A stretch of 64,000 bases of DNA from Phycisphaerae bacterium (GTDB lineage: Bacteria; Planctomycetota; Phycisphaerae; Phycisphaerales; Phycisphaeraceae), in contig JAUHYI010000015.1 of assembly GCA_030426385.1 (NCBI GenBank), positions 1 through 64,000 of the forward strand. The letters are read 5' to 3'. Below the pieces are notes generated by a model. That model had not been told where the DNA came from and made no database searches. It saw nothing but the letters and a program-made list of their open reading frames with translations. Of this stretch, positions 1 to 41,855 are shown piece by piece. The position numbers and the translations under genes were made by a program. Positions within the stretch are counted from its first letter, which is position 1, and each line of letters begins with the position of its first letter.

Positions 1-1247
1 CTACGCAGATTTGACGCACAGGTGATGGCTTGTGCTGCTTCCCGAGCGTTGCCTAAGGCGGGCAACAGCAATGCAATGATCACGCTGATGATGGAGATCA
101 CGACCAGTAGTTCGATGAGCGTGAAACCTTTTTTGTTTGGAGCAGGGGCAGAAGCAGAAGCAGGAGTAGGAGCAGAAGCAGAAACTGAGGCCGGCGTGTT
201 GGTTGCCGTGTTCATCGTTGTCTTGTTTGCAGGGTTGGGACGCTTGCGGGCTGCACCGCATGACTCGCGAATCACCAGCGATGTCGGCAGTACAACGGTT
301 TTGGGGGGCGATGATGGATTTCGCAGGTGGTCGTCAACAAGTTCGTAGCATTTACGACCCAGCAGAGTCATGTCTTGAAACACGCAGGTCAAAGGTACAT
401 CGAGCATCGCGGCGGCTTTGCTTCCACTGAAACCGACGACTGGCACATCCACGCCAGGTTCGTATCCAAAGTCTCGAAGCCCTCGATACACCACCGAGGC
501 GATTCCATCTTCGATTAGAAACAACGCTGGTGGTGATGGTTCGGCATGGAGCATTTGCAACACGGCAGATTGTCCGCTGGCGTCGGGTAAGTAACGATAG
601 ACTGCCGGCGGGGCACTGGTTGGCGAAAATTCAGCGAGTACCGCTTCGAATGCTGAAATGCGCCGGTTCACTGTGGGTAATTCCAGAGCCGGGGCTAGAA
701 TCGCAAAACGTTCGATGCCCAGATCATGCGTCAACTGCCCCAGTTGTCGGGCTCCGTCGCTATCGTTCCAAAGCACGGCGGGCAATGGGTAGTCCATAAA
801 TTCATGGTCGGCCATGATGATCGGAATAGACGTGTCGAGATTCGCGTAGTATCCACCACTACTATCCACACTAAAAAGAATCAGAGCGTCGATATCTTCC
901 TGCAATAACCGTTCGACGATCTGGCGTTCTCGGGTGAGTTGGCCGTGTGTATTGCTGACGAACACCATGTCATCCGCCGCGGATGCGGCGCCTTCGACGC
1001 CACTGAGCAATTGCCCAAAAAATTCCAGGCTGCAGTCAGGTATGACCACGGCGATGCGTTGGCAGCGCCCATTGGTCTGTTGGCGTCGGGCATCCTCGCG
1101 GCGGCGCTGGGTGCCGTTCATGCGCGAGGCGATCGAGGTGACTCGACGGCGGGTGGCGTCGGACACGCCATAGCGATTGTTCAACGCACGTGAGACGGTC
1201 GATGGGTTGAGTCCCAGTTCTTTGGCGATTTTATTGACAGTGGTCAT
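1..1247 (-). CDS. LacI-family repressor fused to a prepilin/pseudopilin N-terminus (partial, runs off left edge)
   Basis: One open frame runs from ATG 1247 to the left edge, 415 codons without a stop. Residues 1-50 form a LacI helix-turn-helix ([21 protein letters not shown]). About 65-330 form a periplasmic-binding-protein-like sensor ending in the usual LacI tail [11 protein letters not shown]. Residues 331-373 are an Ala/Ser/Pro/Thr linker. Then comes a prepilin cleavage site, G374/F375 (KKGFTLIE), a hydrophobic helix and the typical [11 protein letters not shown] and SNLR segment of H-X9-DG pseudopilins. The only internal ATG before the pilin part (215) has no ribosome-binding site, which favours a real fusion. 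An AGGGA site at 1257-1261 supports the 1247 start. The repressor part would lie in the cytoplasm, the side where prepilin peptidase cuts. The C-terminal pilin domain is not in the window. Confidence 0.85.
142..195. repeat. Imperfect hexanucleotide repeat encoding the fusion linker
   Basis: The plus strand reads repeated GCAGAA/GCAGGA units. On the minus strand they encode the Ser-Ala-Pro linker between repressor and pilin parts. Hexamer slippage would change linker length without shifting the frame. Confidence 0.7.
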
Positions 1248-1276
1248 GGGTATTTCCCTAAGAGATGTCGGTGACC

Positions 1277-1305
1277 AAAATACCACTGTTGCGTTAAAAT
1301 TGCAA
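1277..1305 (-). promoter_or_regulatory. Candidate sigma70-type promoter of the LacI-pilin gene
   Basis: On the minus strand TTGCAA and TATTTT are 17 bp apart. They sit about 30 bp upstream of ATG 1247, with AGGGA as ribosome-binding site between. The hexamers are imperfect. Confidence 0.4.
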
Positions 1306-1313
1306 GATATTTC

Positions 1314-1337
1314 GCAATATCATTGCAATTTAATTGC
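1314..1337. promoter_or_regulatory. Two overlapping palindromic operators, GCAAT-N3-ATTGC
   Basis: GCAATATCATTGC (1314-1326) and GCAATTTAATTGC (1325-1337) share two bases. Their centres are 11 bp apart, one helical turn, which suits side-by-side protein binding. They lie just upstream of the candidate -35 of the LacI-pilin gene. LacI proteins bind such short palindromes, so autoregulation is likely but inferred. Confidence 0.55.
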
Positions 1338-2406: not shown

Positions 2407-3600
2407 TCAAGCTGGCAAGCCATCAAGGTTAACCACATACATCTGGCGGGTGCCCTCGTGAGTGGAATCGATGCATATCTGAGAGCCATCGCGATTCCAT
2501 CGTGGGTGTAGATCGCATCGCCAGGATTCATTGGTGACTGGCATCGCTGCGAATGCTCCGATGTCGATTCGTTGATCGGTGGTGGGATTGTAGATCATTA
2601 ATTGTTGTTCGCGTTTAGGGCCACGTGGGTAGGAATCGGTCAGCATCCATTGGCGGTCTGCACTGAAATTGCAATGCCCATCGTAACGAGGGAGGCTGTT
2701 GCCAAGGATCGATCGCTCGCCAGAGCGATCATGGGCAACGGTGAATTCGCCGCTTTGTGATTCGTCAGCGTTTAATGCAAAGAGCCAGATGGCGATGTGC
2801 GTATCGTCAAGCCAATCGAAATGTGAAATGCCGCAGTCTTCGATTAAACAGCACGGCTCAGTGCCGTCGGGATTGATGGTGAATAGCCGGGTTTGGAATC
2901 CGCGATGGCCGGGCACGGCGGACTCGGCCCAGCGGTGAAGAAATAGCAGACGCGAGCCGGTGGGATTAAACTTAATGTGATTGAACCAGGCTTTGTGGCC
3001 CGCGTCGGGTTTGATGTTGCCGAAATTCGCGGCCTGGGCGATGCTGAAAATCAATTCGCGATCAGCGGTGTTCATATCAACACGATATAGGCCATCGTCA
3101 TCGGGTTGCAGGGTGTCGGCACGCGGATCGGGGACGCCGAAATAGCCATAGCCTGGGCGGGTATCCGTGATCCGCTCGAACGTGAGTGTGGCAGCCGTTC
3201 GGCCATCGGATGCGATGTCGTAAAGTGCGTGGGCAAACGTACGAGTTTCGTGGCTGTCTAAATCATGAATTCGGCTGACGTATCGATTGTTTTCGAGATC
3301 GTTGTAAATCAGAATGCGTTGTTCCTGCGGGGGCATCCAGCGCAGCATGCACCCTTGCTGCCAGTTCCATGCGTGAGTTTTTCCCACGGTGATAAATGGA
3401 TGTTGCGCGTCATGCAGATCGATAACGCCGACGGTTAATGAATCATCCCGCGTGGGATTGCGATCCAAAAAAGAGTTTTGCATGGCGAGCAGGTAGCGTC
3501 CGTCACGACTCCAGGGGCATTTGTCGTAGTAGCCGAAAAAATGATGCAGTGGTGAGTGAGTCACGCGTTGGACGGGCATGATGTGCGTGGCTTGTGACAT
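2407..3600 (-). CDS. Beta-propeller protein (TolB/oligogalacturonate-lyase-like), cytoplasmic
   Basis: A 397-residue protein without signal peptide. It shows repeated W/F-x-x-D-G-x blades such as CPWSRDGRYLL, FSADRQWMLTDS and HPRWNRDGSQICIDS, the pattern of TolB/PD40-type propellers. The last blade (DSTHEGTRQMYVVNLDG) recalls the PL22 oligogalacturonate lyase fold, but I cannot confirm catalytic residues. It is last in the minus-strand operon with the creatininase-like, PLP, MBL and SDR genes. Its start lies 84 bp from the creatininase stop. A role in handling a sugar acid or modified sugar is inference. Confidence 0.7.
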   Translation of the reverse strand: MSQATHIMPVQRVTHSPLHHFFGYYDKCPWSRDGRYLLAMQNSFLDRNPTRDDSLTVGVIDLHDAQHPFITVGKTHAWNWQQGCMLRWMPPQEQRILIYNDLENNRYVSRIHDLDSHETRTFAHALYDIASDGRTAATLTFERITDTRPGYGYFGVPDPRADTLQPDDDGLYRVDMNTADRELIFSIAQAANFGNIKPDAGHKAWFNHIKFNPTGSRLLFLHRWAESAVPGHRGFQTRLFTINPDGTEPCCLIEDCGISHFDWLDDTHIAIWLFALNADESQSGEFTVAHDRSGERSILGNSLPRYDGHCNFSADRQWMLTDSYPRGPKREQQLMIYNPTTDQRIDIGAFAAMPVTNESWRCDLHPRWNRDGSQICIDSTHEGTRQMYVVNLDGLPA

Positions 3601-3616
3601 GTGGATCGGCCTTGGC

Positions 3617-3648
3617 GGGTTGGGTAATTGGCGGGGTGGGGTGGGGGG
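3617..3648 (+). other. G-rich tract with G-quadruplex potential
   Basis: Runs of three to six G lie close together (GGGTTGGG, then GGGGTGGGGTGGGGGG) in the short gap between two minus-strand operon genes. The transcript would be C-rich and the template strand G-rich. Confidence 0.4.
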
Positions 3649-3684
3649 TTGCAGTTGTGGTGATCGCGATGTGTCAATGAGAAT

Positions 3685-4563
3685 TTATGGCGAAGCATTG
3701 GCGTGCGCATCGAAATCAGTTTCCGGTTGGTGTTGTTGTGATCGGCGAGGCTTGATGGCGATGTGAGAAAAGTCTTCTCCTAATTCAATCAGGTTGTTGA
3801 TCGTCCATTCGAGTATTTTTTTGCCTTTTTCTGCTGTGGCAGGTGTTGGGTCGCCCTCGACACCGCTGGTATTGTACCGGCTGTAGTTGTCCACAAAATG
3901 CACGTCGGATGATCCCGCAGTCAGGTCTGTCCATATCCATTTCGACCAGGGCGGTGCCATTTCCATGACGGCCTTGCTCATGTCCACGGCATCGGGTTCG
4001 AGTGCCAGGTAAATACTGGTTTCGTACTCGCAGGCGTGTGCGGTGCCGCCGGGACTTGCGCTTTCACGCAGTTCTTGATTGAACGACTCGCTGGATAATG
4101 TCCAGTACGGCAGTCCCATCGCGAGCGCAGACGTTTCATTGACCACGCGACGCGCGACCAGATTGACGAGCATTTGATTCGAGCCGTGTCCGTTGATGAT
4201 GAGGATGCGGCGAAATCCCATGCGTGTATACGAGCGGGCCACGTCGAACACGTAATCCATAAACACTTGCATGCGAATACTGACAGTGCCTGGAAATTCC
4301 ATGTTGTGTTCATTGAATCCGTAAGGCAGCAGGGGAGTATTGAGAAACAAATCGGGTCGACGTTTTGCGGCTTCGGCGCATACGTGGAAACAGCCACGGT
4401 TATCCATGTCGACTGGCAAGTGATAGCCGTGCTGTTCGATGGCTGCAACTGGAATAATGATGATGCGATTTTGTGTCGCTGCTGTGCGCACTTCGGGCCA
4501 GGTCATCGCATCGATCTGATGTTTTACAGAGTTTGAGTTTTGATGTTGATTTCTGTGGGTCAT
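3685..4563 (-). CDS. Creatininase-family amidohydrolase
   Basis: A 292-residue metal-dependent amidohydrolase of the creatininase (creatinine amidohydrolase/FAPy deformylase-like) family. The metal-binding motif EQHGYHLPVDMDN is near residue 43, NGHGSN near 125, and AHACEYETS near 175. The family opens cyclic amides or cleaves formamides; substrates of environmental members are mostly unknown. There is no signal peptide. It sits 67 bp after the PLP enzyme gene, in the same operon. Creatinine as substrate is unlikely to follow from sequence alone. Confidence 0.85.
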   Translation of the reverse strand: MTHRNQHQNSNSVKHQIDAMTWPEVRTAATQNRIIIIPVAAIEQHGYHLPVDMDNRGCFHVCAEAAKRRPDLFLNTPLLPYGFNEHNMEFPGTVSIRMQVFMDYVFDVARSYTRMGFRRILIINGHGSNQMLVNLVARRVVNETSALAMGLPYWTLSSESFNQELRESASPGGTAHACEYETSIYLALEPDAVDMSKAVMEMAPPWSKWIWTDLTAGSSDVHFVDNYSRYNTSGVEGDPTPATAEKGKKILEWTINNLIELGEDFSHIAIKPRRSQQHQPETDFDAHANASP

Positions 4564-4630
4564 GATGTTTGTCTTTCAGGGTGATTGAGCAAGTTGTTTG
4601 TGGGTGGGGGTATCGTGTTGTATTCAAGGT

Positions 4631-36267: not shown

Positions 36268-36409
36268 TGCAAGCTGCAAGAGCTGACGTGAAAGGCTTGG
36301 CTTTAAAGTTATGGTTTGGCACCACAAATAATTGTGGATGTGATTAGGTTTCTCATCTGTGATTTGTTGTAGTGGTAAATTTGTATGTGAAAGCAAGACA
36401 GGTACAGGC

Positions 36410-37810
36410 ATGATACTTTTAATGCGGGTCTGGTTGTTGGGGGTGGTGTATGGGGGCGTTGTTTTTTTATTAGTGGGTTGTGGCGGTCGAGTTTTGCCCG
36501 CTTGGGAAGAAGCGGGCGCGAAGCCGATGGGTGAACCGCGTGGCGAGTTGATACGTGCGGTGCGTAGTGATGAAGACGCGAAGCCCGAGGAAGTGGGGGG
36601 GGCGTTGGGCAAGACGCAGGTGTATTCGATGGGCGTGACCGCGATGGGTTCGAGTCGGGGTGAGATTGAAAATGTGGGGTTGCAATTGCCACGTGTTTCA
36701 CCGGATGGCAAGTGGATTGCCTATCTGGTGAATGGGGCTGATTGGGATCATGTTGCAGGAGTTGAAAAAGCTAGAGACGAGTTGGCCGTCGATTTAGCGG
36801 TGGATTTTGATCAGTTGGTAACGGGCCGCGGGTTGGATGCAGTCGGGTTGGCAGTGCGACCGATTGGTGGTGGTGAAGCGACACTCGTGGCGAAACGTGG
36901 GGCATGTTGGCCTGTGTGGTTTGGCGATAGTGAGCAGTTGCTGTTTGTGTCGTATGACCAGGTCAATGGATGTGCGTTGGGAATTTATGATGTGAAGACG
37001 GGTACGGTTCAGCGAAAGGCTGTGGGGTTACGTCATATGTTGATGCCAGCGGTGAGTGGCGATGGAAAAAAAGTGGCAGTGGTGGGGTATGGTGAGTTGG
37101 CAGACGATGCGAATGTTTTTGTGGTTGATTTGGCGACGGGACAGGTGCAGGCAGGCCCGCATGATAAAGATCGTAGCAATGGTGATGCGGGTAAAGATGA
37201 AGTGGGTGTTGCCGGGGAAAAAGCACAGGAAAAAAAGCAGGGCAATTCGTGGAAAGTGGCGGGGGAGACGGCGATATATCCTAGGTGGGTGGGTGATGAG
37301 GACTTGTTGTTTTTGAGATTGAATAAAGGTAATGAAAAGGCGGAAGGATGGTTGATGCGCTGGCAAATCGGTGCGCGAGAGGCGCGGCGCGTGGGAGCCA
37401 TAAAGTTACCGAGTTCAATTTATGACGCGCAGCATTGCCATGCGGGAATATTGGAAGCGCTTTCGCCAAACTTGGGGTGGTATGCGTATTACGATGTGAT
37501 AAGCGACGAGATGGTGTTGCAGCATTTGATGGGTGAGGATGAAATCACTGCGGGGGCCGAGATGCGATCGGGTGCATGGTGGGATGATGATTGGCTGGTT
37601 GCGGCCAATGATCGCGAGGTGATGTTGGTATCAACGACCGAGCGTGTGAAAGAAGGCGGTCGCGCGTTGACGTTGCGTTTGTTACGTGGGCAGTGGGCCG
37701 TCTTGTGGGCGGATCGCAGTGAACAGTCAGTAATCTTAGTCGGGCCAAGTGGCAATAGCGGGGACAAGTTTGCGATATTACAGTTGTGGCTGGTGTTGAG
37801 TGGAAGATAA
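36410..37810 (+). CDS. TolB/PD40-type propeller lipoprotein
   Basis: A 466-residue predicted lipoprotein. A hydrophobic leader ends in the lipobox LVGC (FLLVGCGGRV), so Cys is lipidated. The body has propeller blades such as PRVSPDGKWIAYLV, PVWFGDSEQLLFVSYD, PAVSGDGKKVAVVGYG and YPRWVGDEDLLFLR. ATG 36410 is chosen since the earlier frame lacks a leader. It lies 140 bp after GspD on the same strand, so it may belong to the same transcript. Role unknown. Confidence 0.72.
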   Translation: MILLMRVWLLGVVYGGVVFLLVGCGGRVLPAWEEAGAKPMGEPRGELIRAVRSDEDAKPEEVGGALGKTQVYSMGVTAMGSSRGEIENVGLQLPRVSPDGKWIAYLVNGADWDHVAGVEKARDELAVDLAVDFDQLVTGRGLDAVGLAVRPIGGGEATLVAKRGACWPVWFGDSEQLLFVSYDQVNGCALGIYDVKTGTVQRKAVGLRHMLMPAVSGDGKKVAVVGYGELADDANVFVVDLATGQVQAGPHDKDRSNGDAGKDEVGVAGEKAQEKKQGNSWKVAGETAIYPRWVGDEDLLFLRLNKGNEKAEGWLMRWQIGAREARRVGAIKLPSSIYDAQHCHAGILEALSPNLGWYAYYDVISDEMVLQHLMGEDEITAGAEMRSGAWWDDDWLVAANDREVMLVSTTERVKEGGRALTLRLLRGQWAVLWADRSEQSVILVGPSGNSGDKFAILQLWLVLSGR

Positions 37811-37843: not shown

Positions 37844-38935
37844 TCAGTGTTGGGCAAGTTTACGATCCAGGGCCGCTAACACGTGTATGTTTTTTCCAAC
37901 CAATGCCACACGGCCGTCATCCATCACGGTAATTTTTCGCAGTATTTCATTGGGCGCGTAGTAGTATCCGAGTTTGCGTAACGGATGATCAGGGCGCACG
38001 TCGTATACGACGACGCCTGACTGAGGCTCGTTGATTAGGACATATAGCAGGCCTTCATGTAACAACCAATCGATCGTTTTGGCATCGATCAGTTTTTCCA
38101 GAGGTGACGGCAATAATTCATCAACCAGGCGAAAGGGGCGTTTGTTGGTTGGTTCGTAGACTTTGATGCCTGATTTGATGTACGCGATCACTCGATTGTT
38201 TTGCCAAAAGTGTGGTGTTATTTGTTGGCTCACATGTGCGTAAACTTTGTCATAAGTCTCGCGATCCAAGCCGTCATCGCGTGGCCATTTTTGTCGGTCC
38301 ATCGTTGTGTTATGACCACTCACGTTCGCCACCATGCCAAAGAAGCCGGGCAGTTCATAGCTTGCGATTCGCATCGGTTTGGTCGGGTCGTCCAGACCGA
38401 AACGTATCAAGCAGATGCCTGTACCTCTGAACGATTTGGACTTGGTTATGTTGGTTAACCCTTTGGGTTTGATTATATGGCCGGTTACCCATAGTTCGCC
38501 ATCGATAATTTTGACGCTGGGATTGTCGTGAGCATTTTTAAACAGCTGGAAGTTGTTGAGTTTTGTGCGTGCCAGCGTTGTAACCTGGTTGCCCTGTTGG
38601 CTAAAGCGAGCAGTGACAAGATTGATCTCGTTGATATTCCATTGGGGGTATTGTTTTGATCGTTCGCCTTTTGATTCGATCATGTACACCAGGTCGGGGT
38701 GATGTGCGGACCATGCCACAAGATTACTACGATCATCTGTCATAATTGTTGGTAACGATGCCGTACTTAATGTAAATGAATGGGATGCCGTTAGATTGAG
38801 TTTTCGGATTTCAACAGGTAGTGTCCATTCACGTTTTACGACAGCCACGCCTTGACCATTTTGGTGAATCAGATCGATTGTCGGGTATTGATTCTTGATG
38901 TGTTCAGCCGTGGTTAACGGGATGATGTGATCGAC
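37844..38935 (-). pseudogene. Periplasmic propeller-like domain, detached from the permease by an in-frame TAA
   Basis: The frame is open from the TAA at 38936-38938 down to 37844. The 29 codons after the stop (beginning VDHIIPLTTAEHIKNQ) read as protein and contain no ATG. The only starts are GTG 38848, without a proper ribosome-binding site, or weaker ones. The domain has repeated strands (SFTLSTASLPTIMTDD, LVAWSAHHPDLVYMIE, NNRVIAYIKSGIKVYEP). It shares the frame of the upstream permease, whose seventh helix would place this domain outside the membrane. I read it as the C-terminal half of one gene split by a nonsense mutation. Confidence 0.6.
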
Positions 38936-39778
38936 TTAGAGGTTGTTGCCGACCTGTACCGCTGCGATAGAAAATAAACCCAAGCCAGCAATGGCGAAAA
39001 GCCAGGCCAATTGCGTGACCCCCAATCGCAGCTGCCATTGTTTGATCGTGACGACCAAAGCCAAGCCAAGGCCAATTGCGAAGATGACCAATTCGCCGCC
39101 GATCGTCCACAAAGGATTGATCCGCATCGCATGGCGCTGAAAATCGAATGGATTCATGAAATTGAGGGAGGGTGCCAATATAGGCGCAAAATAGATCAGC
39201 AACCCGACAATGCAGCCAAGGAACATCGCCGGGATAGCGCGTCGCGTCCAGCATGCCAGACCGAATGTCGCAGCATAAATCGCAGTATGAATCGATATCT
39301 GTGTCACGCCCACAAACAGAAACGTTCGGAGAAGATAGAAAGACAGAGGGTGTCGTGAACCAATCTGATATGAGTTTGGTAATATCCAATCAAACACGCC
39401 TTGCAGGATGAGGAGCGTGGTCAATACACTCAGTAGGATCGATAACCCGACAGTAAATTTTACCAGGATGAATGATATGGTACGTATTGGCAAGGTTCGC
39501 CAGGGTTCGACATGTGTGTCGCTCACATCGCGGCTTACGATCATGATCGCAATCATTAACGCAAAAAATGCCCCGCCGCCATATGCGATGTGAGCCAGAT
39601 TCTGTCGATACGAATAACGCCAAGTATCCAGTTGTACATGCTCGGCGTATGTCCAGCAATTGATCGTAACCTGTAGCAGTGGAAATACGAGCAGTATCGT
39701 GGCGCCAGCGTACCACGCCCAGCGGGATTCATGTAATTCTTTCCACCACAGGGATCGAGTTATTGCGGTTTTCATCAT
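38936..39778 (-). CDS. ABC-2-type permease, probably truncated by an in-frame stop
   Basis: A 280-residue membrane protein with seven hydrophobic helices (WAWYAGATILLVFPLL, YGGGAFFALMIAIMIV, and the last FAIAGLGLFSIAAVQVG). Short charged loops and a cytoplasmic N-terminus place the C-terminus outside. The stop TAA is directly followed in the same frame by the propeller-like domain, so the full protein would be about 640 residues. Its ATG lies one base from the stop of the other permease. Confidence 0.75.
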   Translation of the reverse strand: MMKTAITRSLWWKELHESRWAWYAGATILLVFPLLQVTINCWTYAEHVQLDTWRYSYRQNLAHIAYGGGAFFALMIAIMIVSRDVSDTHVEPWRTLPIRTISFILVKFTVGLSILLSVLTTLLILQGVFDWILPNSYQIGSRHPLSFYLLRTFLFVGVTQISIHTAIYAATFGLACWTRRAIPAMFLGCIVGLLIYFAPILAPSLNFMNPFDFQRHAMRINPLWTIGGELVIFAIGLGLALVVTIKQWQLRLGVTQLAWLFAIAGLGLFSIAAVQVGNNL

Positions 39779-39779
39779 G

Positions 39780-40493
39780 TCATCCTTTGGTTCGTGATAA
39801 TTTGGAAAAACGCCACATTGCCCAGCTAATCATTAGTGTTAGTGTGACCGCATTGCCCGCGATGATTTGGACTAGCTGGGTAGTGGTGATGCTGCGTCGT
39901 TCTAGAAATTCCATGCACCCCAGTGGTGTACAGCGAATGATGGCAACAGCGAACGATGTATCCCATTCCGCAAGAAGCCCTATCAATCCTCCGCCGCCCA
40001 GTATGACACCCATTCCCACCAATCCCACACGTGCTTCACTCGGTTGGCGAACACCAAGGCATAGCACCCAAAGATAAACCCCGACACAAATCGGTGACAG
40101 AAACTTGAAAAACCGGAACATGAATTCAGTTGAAGCTTCGCGATCGCCAGCGATAACTACAAACATTGTTAACGCCATCAGGATAGGTAGTGTCAGTAAC
40201 ACGGCGGTTACCAAGGCTTTGATCATCAGGATTTTCCAGGGGTGAATGGGAAGCGATAACAACAAGCCTATTGTGCCTTCGCGTCGATCACCTGCGATCG
40301 GCCACATAGCAAAAAACACGCTCAACACGACAGCCATCATGGCGCAGAATATCAACACCTCGCTGTCGGGTATGATTCGCGAGTGTAGCGCCACCCCGGT
40401 GAAACCACACAGAATAAATATCCCCAGTGCCGTGCCCGATGCATTCTCGCGTAGTTCTTTCCAGATCAGTTTGCGGATCGCAGAGTGTTTCAT
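39780..40493 (-). CDS. ABC-2-type permease
   Basis: A 237-residue protein with six hydrophobic helices (GTALGIFILCGFTGVAL, VLIFCAMMAVVLSVFFAMWPI, VGLVGMGVILGGGGLIGLL). The layout fits ABC-2 export permeases. Its ATG overlaps the ATPase stop as ATGA. It pairs with the second permease and the (broken) ATPase. Confidence 0.8.
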   Translation of the reverse strand: MKHSAIRKLIWKELRENASGTALGIFILCGFTGVALHSRIIPDSEVLIFCAMMAVVLSVFFAMWPIAGDRREGTIGLLLSLPIHPWKILMIKALVTAVLLTLPILMALTMFVVIAGDREASTEFMFRFFKFLSPICVGVYLWVLCLGVRQPSEARVGLVGMGVILGGGGLIGLLAEWDTSFAVAIIRCTPLGCMEFLERRSITTTQLVQIIAGNAVTLTLMISWAMWRFSKLSRTKG

Positions 40494-41412
40494 ACCGCTA
40501 CCTTTTCAGATTGCATGGTTGAGGATTGTGTTGTGGGTCGGCCGATGACGTAGGCTTCAAAAATTTCGTCAAGATTCAGGTCCACCACATCAAACGTTGC
40601 CCGCGCTTGCCGTAAACGGTCGATCACCCATGAGGCATCGGACACCGTGACGGCAATGCGCGGGCCGTCTTGTTGGACATCGAGCCGTGCCAACGTGCCC
40701 GGAAGGGCGGCGTATGATTGTTCATCCATGACTATTTTTTTAACCTTGGACCGCAGTGCATCGGTTTGTGTTTGTACAACGATGCGCCCCTTGTCGAGTA
40801 TTGCTATCTGGTCAGCGATGGGTTCGACTTCGTACAGTAAATGTGATGAATACAACACGGTGCGACCTTCGCCTTGCAGGTGCGTAATCAAGTCGCGATT
40901 GAATTCTTTGCGCATGATTGGATCGAGGCCCAATGCGGGATCGTCGAGGATGACAACTTGAGGTCGATGAGCCAGAGCGAGCATTAAACCAACACGCACG
41001 CCTTGGCCTTTTGAAAGATGCTTGACTTTCGTGGTGCGTGGTAATTCGAACTGTTGCGTAAGGCGATGGGCTAGCGCATCGTCCCATGACGGATAGAACG
41101 GGCCATGAATCGTGTGATCTGTTCAATCGTCATCCAGCCGAACATTTTTTGATCTTCTGCGAGATAGCCCACCCTGCGCCGAATATCGATGGCGTGACGG
41201 CATGGGGTTTGGCCGAGTATTTCTATTTGTCCTGCATCGGGTTTGAGAAGGCCAAGCAGTGATCGTAACAACGTGGTTTTGCCGGCACCGTTTCTACCGA
41301 GTAATGCAAAAGTTTGACCTGGTGCAATCGTCAATGAAACATCATTGAGCACTGGCTTACGGCCAAAAGATTTTGCCACGTGACGAACAAGAATGTCGGG
41401 TTGCTTGGTCAT
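40490..41412 (-). pseudogene. ABC transporter ATPase, frameshifted
   Basis: The first 113 codons encode Walker A GRNGAGKTT and run to ITRFMARSIRHGTMR, then stop. The continuation lies in another frame: FYPSWDDALAHRL, the signature LSKGQ, and Walker B VVILDDPALGLDP, to the stop at 40490. One missing T (an A on the plus strand, in GAA at 41096-41098) explains the shift: CGT-TTC-TAT becomes CGT-TCT-ATC. Restoring it gives a 307-residue protein. Either a true mutation or an assembly error. Confidence 0.85.
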
Positions 41413-41855
41413 GATTGGTTCCCGTCGGATTGAGTGCGAGGAGGTGAGGACGTTGTGGAGTGCGAGGTGTTGGTTGGATTGTTGATTTGCTTCAGAGCGC
41501 GTTCGAAGAGCATGCGCAGTTGATCGTCGTCGAGACCGAGTAGCTGGCCTGTTCGAGCAACCTGGCCTAGCTCGTCTTCGAATTGCTGACGTTGTTTATT
41601 GAATTCACGAATGGGCGGATGGTCGGCCACGAATGTTCCCGAGCCGTGCCGACGTTCGAGGTAACCGTCAGCGGTCAGCATTTCATAGACACGAAGTATG
41701 GTGTTCTGGTTGACCGCCAACTCGCGTGCTAATTCACGGACAGAAGGGACTAGCTGGCCCGGCGTAAGCGTACCTGCCAGACATTGGGCTTTGAATTGGC
41801 CCACGATCTGGCGGCTGATCGGAACGCTGGATGCTTTTTCAATTCGGATAAGCAT
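41409..41855 (-). CDS. GntR-family regulator (YtrA type)
   Basis: A 148-residue regulator. The winged helix (ISRQIVGQFKAQCLAGTLTPGQLVPSVRELARELAVNQNTILRVYEML) is followed by a short helical dimerisation tail and a disordered Ser/Thr end, the YtrA-type length. YtrA proteins commonly repress the ABC transporter operon they head. It overlaps the ATPase start as ATGA. Confidence 0.88.
   Translation of the reverse strand: MLIRIEKASSVPISRQIVGQFKAQCLAGTLTPGQLVPSVRELARELAVNQNTILRVYEMLTADGYLERRHGSGTFVADHPPIREFNKQRQQFEDELGQVARTGQLLGLDDDQLRMLFERALKQINNPTNTSHSTTSSPPRTQSDGNQS

What the first reader, a model, noticed from the sequence alone, without database searches (positions are those of the whole stretch)
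37844..39778. In-frame TAA splits a permease from its periplasmic propeller
The TAA at 38936-38938 is in the same frame as both neighbours. The 29 codons after it read as protein and have no ATG. The seventh helix leaves the C-terminus outside, as a periplasmic propeller would need. So a fusion of about 640 residues was probably cut by one nonsense codon. With the ATPase lesion this makes two defects in one operon, a sign of decay.
Basis: partly seen in the sequence, partly recalled or inferred. Interest (0 to 1): 0.6.

Follow-up and report, generated by a model that had tools for sequence, protein, structure and literature searches.

The report
Nonsense-broken permease-propeller gene in decaying operon
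In this bacterium (a Phycisphaerae planctomycete) a gene that relatives carry as one long protein, a membrane pump subunit fused to a propeller domain that probably faces outside, is cut in two by a single stop codon, and the pump's motor gene in the same operon is also broken, so this looks like an ordinary pump that was recently lost.

Summary
A 280-codon frame (39778-38939) ends at TAA 38936-38938; the same frame stays open for 363 more codons, with no start codon in the first 29.

Seventeen relatives encode the same protein as one continuous frame (about 610-710 aa) through this joint; none has a stop there. The TAA column holds Glu/Thr/Glu in the three nearest.

Relatives share a GntR / ABC ATPase / permease 1 / permease 2-propeller operon with an intact ATPase. 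In the window the ATPase is split by a frameshift near 41100. About 41 other ABC ATPase domains and 16 full-length sulfatases in this genome are unbroken, so the lesions are not assembly-wide. Apart from these two lesions the frames are clean and not fast-evolving: a recent loss, or less likely a local consensus error (no reads to check).

Verdict: a recently pseudogenised, patchily distributed YtrA-like ABC-2 transporter operon. The lesion is ordinary. The conserved permease-propeller fusion in Phycisphaerae is mildly interesting; I found no paper on it in the library searched.

The parts
41409..41855 (-). GntR-family regulator, short YtrA-like type, intact (148 aa)
   Evidence: PF00392 E 1e-15; 64% identical to the G040 protein
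41071..41412 (-). ABC ATPase, 5' part with Walker A, ends early after the frameshift
   Evidence: PF00005 profile 1-78; matches relative residues 5-112
41098..41104 (-). approximate place of the frameshift in the ATPase gene
   Evidence: the two frame-specific matches to an intact relative meet here
40490..41122 (-). ABC ATPase, 3' part (open frame) with signature and Walker B
   Evidence: matches relative residues 111-305 at 65% identity; open frame
39780..40493 (-). ABC-2 permease 1, intact (237 aa)
   Evidence: PF12679 over its cut-off; homologue in the relatives' operons
38936..39778 (-). permease 2, membrane part with seven hydrophobic segments, ends at the nonsense codon (280 aa)
   Evidence: family profile positions 2-307; hydropathy
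38951..39007 (-). seventh hydrophobic segment (residues 258-276)
   Evidence: hydropathy; helix 254-280 in the model
38936..38938 (-). in-frame TAA; Glu, Thr, Glu in the three nearest relatives
37844..38935 (-). remainder of permease 2: propeller part, 363 open codons without a start at the joint, then TGA
   Evidence: family profile positions 309-669; Foldseek propellers

Best explanation
This is a recently inactivated four-gene ABC transporter operon: GntR regulator, ATPase, permease 1, and permease 2 fused to a propeller. In relatives the last gene makes one protein: six ABC-2-type membrane helices, a seventh helix that carries the chain across the membrane, and a beta-propeller. In this genome one nonsense codon directly after the seventh helix cuts off the propeller, and a frameshift in the ATPase separates the Walker A half from the signature/Walker B half, so the pump has no motor. 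Shown: the fusion in relatives, the stop, the frameshift, the otherwise clean operon. Inferred: that the propeller lies outside (topology), that it binds a substrate or an envelope signal, that the regulator senses envelope stress as YtrA does, and that the lesions are real and recent rather than consensus errors.
For: Continuous homologues: G040, G022, G081, 16 relatives in one alignment and L060; none has a stop at the joint. Intact ATPase in the same operon of the relatives. Only the window's ABC_tran domain is split among about 42 in the genome; 16 sulfatases are full-length. No close paralogue takes over: the next ATPase is 33-40% identical to the probe against 64-65% for the window halves. 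Patchy operon: a close intact ATPase in 5 of 300 other genomes of the order. Relative-rate tests show no excess of changes on the window branch, before or after the stop; two lesions fit about 0.4-0.7% neutral divergence under assumed indel ratios.
Against: No reads: each lesion is one base-level event in a draft genome of 177 contigs, and a locally poor consensus would cluster too. No close strain was found for comparison. The clean evolution of both genes is also what two errors in a working operon would look like.
Confidence: 0.78

Rival explanations
1. Consensus or assembly errors: the organism has an intact operon and the draft sequence is wrong at the two places.
For: The rest of the operon is clean and not fast-evolving. 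Draft genome of 177 contigs, 94% complete. No reads to check.
Against: No break in about 41 other ABC_tran domains or 16 full-length sulfatases of the genome, one of them on the same contig. With errors spread evenly at the 95% upper bound from those stretches, two in this 4-kb operon have P about 0.015-0.045 (the lengths of clean sequence are my estimates).
Confidence: 0.17
2. Two real genes: the propeller is translated on its own from a later start (for example GTG 38848) and works with the permease.
For: The frame after the stop is fully open for 363 codons.
Against: No start in the first 29 codons; a product from GTG 38848 would lack the start of the domain and the seventh helix that would bring it outside. 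No relative has this arrangement. The split ATPase leaves no motor.
Confidence: 0.03
3. Programmed readthrough or recoding of the TAA (and frameshifting in the ATPase) still gives some full-length protein.
For: The frame after the stop is intact and shows no excess of changes.
Against: The stop is not conserved in any relative. TAA is an ordinary stop of neighbouring genes. The sequence at the frameshift is not a recognised slippery heptamer (my reading).
Confidence: 0.02

Closest known systems
Intact homologous operons in Phycisphaerae, e.g. Phycisphaerales bacterium UBA7800 (L059 = G040) and Phycisphaeraceae bacterium PL23b_bin.16 (L061 = G081)
   Same: GntR, ATPase, permease 1 and permease 2 in the same order; window proteins 38-64% identical to G040 apart from the propeller part (30%)
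   Different: ATPase unbroken and permease 2-propeller one continuous frame in the relatives
Sister form without propeller (G006, G041; G770, G729, G782 in other planctomycetes)
   Same: Related ATPase next to ABC-2 permeases; GntR gene also seen in G006, G041 and G770
   Different: Both permeases share one frame of about 530-560 aa that ends near helix 6, without helix 7 or propeller
ytrGABCDEF operon of Bacillus subtilis (GntR repressor YtrA; PMC7828314)
   Same: Short GntR regulator in an operon with an ABC transporter that has separate ATPase and membrane proteins
   Different: YtrBCDEF has two ATPases and a separate solute-binding protein YtrF; no permease-propeller fusion is described in that paper's passages; homology of the permeases was not tested here
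PmtR-regulated PSM exporter of staphylococci (NCBIfam NF047563, NF047565)
   Same: GntR hit to PmtR model E 1.5e-16; 3' ATPase part hits PmtA model E 1.4e-16
   Different: Both far below the curated cut-offs (60.5 of 200 bits, 60.6 of 350 bits), so not members

Membership tests
Pseudogene by nonsense and frameshift | Stop inside a frame that relatives keep open | tested here: met
   17 relatives continuous through the joint, window with one TAA
Pseudogene by nonsense and frameshift | Lesions not explained by genome-wide sequence errors | tested here: met
   About 41 other ABC_tran domains and 16 full-length sulfatases unbroken
Pseudogene by nonsense and frameshift | Lesions supported by reads | not testable with these tools
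   No reads available
Pseudogene by nonsense and frameshift | Relaxed selection over the remaining sequence | tested here: not met
   No excess of changes on the window branch; expected if the loss is recent, and also if the lesions are errors
ABC-2 type transporter operon with YtrA-like GntR regulator | Short GntR protein next to the transporter genes | tested here: met
   PF00392 over cut-off, 148 aa; conserved next to the ATPase in relatives
ABC-2 type transporter operon with YtrA-like GntR regulator | Permeases of ABC-2 type | tested here: met
   Permease 1 hits PF12679 over cut-off. Permease 2 has no hit in the window, but 3 of 17 family members hit ABC2_membrane_2 and 2 hit ABC2_membrane_5
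ABC-2 type transporter operon with YtrA-like GntR regulator | ATPase with Walker A, signature and Walker B in one chain | tested here: not met
   Split in the window; met in the relatives
Beta-propeller domain | Repeated small beta-sheet blades | tested here: inconclusive
   Best Foldseek matches are propellers (E down to 6e-6) but TM-scores are low and model confidence is low, pLDDT 60.7; LVIVD repeat in 2 of 17 members
Beta-propeller domain | Extracytoplasmic location | not testable with these tools
   Inferred from seven hydrophobic segments and an N-in ABC-2 topology
Programmed stop-codon readthrough | Stop conserved at the same place in relatives | tested here: not met
   No relative has it
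Two separate genes | Start codon soon after the stop, and the same arrangement in relatives | tested here: not met
   No start in 29 codons; all complete relatives with a propeller are fused

The most novel reading that the evidence does not exclude
The intact family is an undescribed ABC-2 transporter architecture in which one permease carries its own extracytoplasmic propeller as a built-in receptor, under a YtrA-like GntR regulator, with a sister form that lacks the propeller; the window shows one lineage just after losing the system.
Probability: 0.4. Interest if true: 0.45.

Novelty: new member of a known kind. Interest (0 to 1): 0.25.

Why it matters
The lesion is an ordinary gene loss; its practical use is that the two window frames should be annotated as one broken gene. 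The intact relatives define a conserved permease-propeller fusion in Phycisphaerae that Pfam barely covers (3 of 17 members hit an ABC-2 model, 2 hit LVIVD) and for which I found no paper in the library searched. If the propeller is a receptor, these bacteria have a pump with a built-in outside sensor.

Tried and rejected
The first scan of genome contigs with the single protein found nothing; a profile of seven sequences was too diverse to scan with; the four-sequence profile found three named genomes. The apparent break in relative L044 lies at masked bases read as X and was dropped. G006 first looked like a second broken copy but is a propeller-less form. The 'stops inside' reported for G782 and G729 were not traced base by base; those loci carry the propeller-less form in open frames of 546 and 532 aa. 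Sequence search of solved structures gave only chance-level hits and PHROGs none. A sigma-70 scan of the region found no site. Literature searches for an ABC-2 permease with a propeller found no paper.

Full report
What is there. The feature is on the minus strand. Reading 39778 to 37844 gives 280 codons, TAA at 38936-38938, 363 more codons in the same frame, and TGA. No ATG, GTG or TTG occurs in the 29 codons after the TAA. The gene starts inside the last bases of permease 1 (39780-40493), which overlaps the end of the ATPase region, which overlaps the GntR gene (41409-41855): a tight operon. The ATPase is covered by two frames that meet near 41100. By Pfam the operon is GntR (PF00392), ABC_tran (split) and an ABC-2 permease (PF12679); the two halves of the finding have no Pfam hit of their own.

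Sameness of frame alone is weak evidence: two neighbouring genes share a frame by chance one time in three. The window has such a case at 4575-2410, where a creatininase gene is followed in the same frame by another gene with an ATG of its own. The test is homology.

Homologues. The read-through protein found continuous homologues in G040, G022 and G081 (open frames of 681, 713 and 700 aa, no stop). A profile of these found more across the class. After fetching the loci, 16 relatives entered the alignment of the full fusion, each one continuous frame through the joint; in one of them (L048) masked bases read as X lie far downstream of the joint. A further relative, L060 (652 aa), came from the scan of named genomes, which also named G040 as Phycisphaerales bacterium UBA7800 and G081 as Phycisphaeraceae bacterium PL23b_bin.16. 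Some other hits are too short to judge (L054, L055), cut by the contig end (L047), or interrupted by masked bases (L044). No relative has a stop at the joint. The column of the TAA is Glu, Thr, Glu in the three nearest.

Operon context. The three nearest relatives carry GntR, an intact ATPase, permease 1 and the fusion in this order. More distant ones carry the same kinds of genes, in some with the ATPase last. Two genomes of the same family (G006, G041) and three of other planctomycetes (G770, G729, G782) carry a sister form in which the two permeases share one frame of about 530-560 aa that ends near helix 6, without a propeller. A close intact ATPase occurs in only 5 of 300 other genomes of the order, so the operon is patchy and evidently dispensable.

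Structure. Hydropathy gives seven segments; the seventh (residues 258-276) ends just before the stop. AlphaFold2 with four sequences puts helices up to residue 280 and strands from 285 on, with low confidence (mean pLDDT 60.7). The intact relative gives the same general layout (58.1). The best Foldseek matches are propellers and two family members hit the LVIVD repeat. So 'propeller' is likely, 'outside' is inferred from topology, and the number of blades is unknown.

Decay or error. In the same genome about 41 other ABC_tran domains sit in single frames and only the window's is split. Sixteen sulfatases are full-length and unbroken; two more matches cover only part of the domain (one at a contig end; C151:63595-64179 was not followed up). 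If errors were spread evenly at the 95% upper bound allowed by these clean stretches (35.7 kb of domains or about 66 kb of frames, both my estimates), two in this 4-kb operon would have P about 0.045 or 0.015. This favours real lesions but is no proof, since a locally poor consensus would cluster too. Relative-rate tests against G040 with two outgroups show no excess of changes on the window branch in any operon gene, before or after the stop. With a stop-creating share of 3.8% and assumed indel/substitution ratios of 0.03-0.1, two lesions correspond to about 0.4-0.7% neutral divergence, with an upper bound of about 1-2%. So the loss, if real, is recent.

Mechanism of the intact family (inferred). 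In ytrGABCDEF of Bacillus subtilis the GntR repressor YtrA controls an ABC transporter induced by cell-wall antibiotics (PMC7828314). By analogy I propose a GntR-controlled ABC-2 exporter whose propeller binds a substrate or envelope signal outside. The substrate is unknown. In the window the split ATPase would abolish transport whatever the fate of the propeller.

Verdict. Observation confirmed, interpretation supported, ordinary pseudogenisation. The architecture of the intact family is the more interesting part, but its novelty is shown only against the papers and family libraries that could be searched here.

Noticed in passing
window 3-1319 (-): A LacI-family regulator (HTH at residues 30-68, periplasmic-binding-like domain to 354) reads without a stop into a type IV pilin N-methylation motif (residues 395-419) at the left end of the contig: a fusion, or two genes in one frame.
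   Followed up: partly
window 2410-4575 (-): Creatininase gene (PF02633) and a downstream gene in the same frame, separated by one stop, with an ATG about 30 codons on; an ordinary gene pair that shows how weak same-frame evidence is.
   Followed up: yes
window 36359-37810 (+): Convergent neighbour at the end of the secretion-like cluster, with a weak WD40-like/TolB-type propeller match (PF07676; TIGR02800 far below cut-off).
   Followed up: no
L058, L095, L096, L097, L098: Sister operons in which both permeases share one frame of about 530-560 aa and no propeller follows.
   Followed up: partly
L049, L052, L053, L056, L057: Same gene kinds with changed order: the ATPase follows the permease-propeller gene.
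   Followed up: no
G000:C151:63595-64179: A sulfatase match that covers only profile positions 1-188 in a 273-aa frame; contig end or another broken gene.
   Followed up: no
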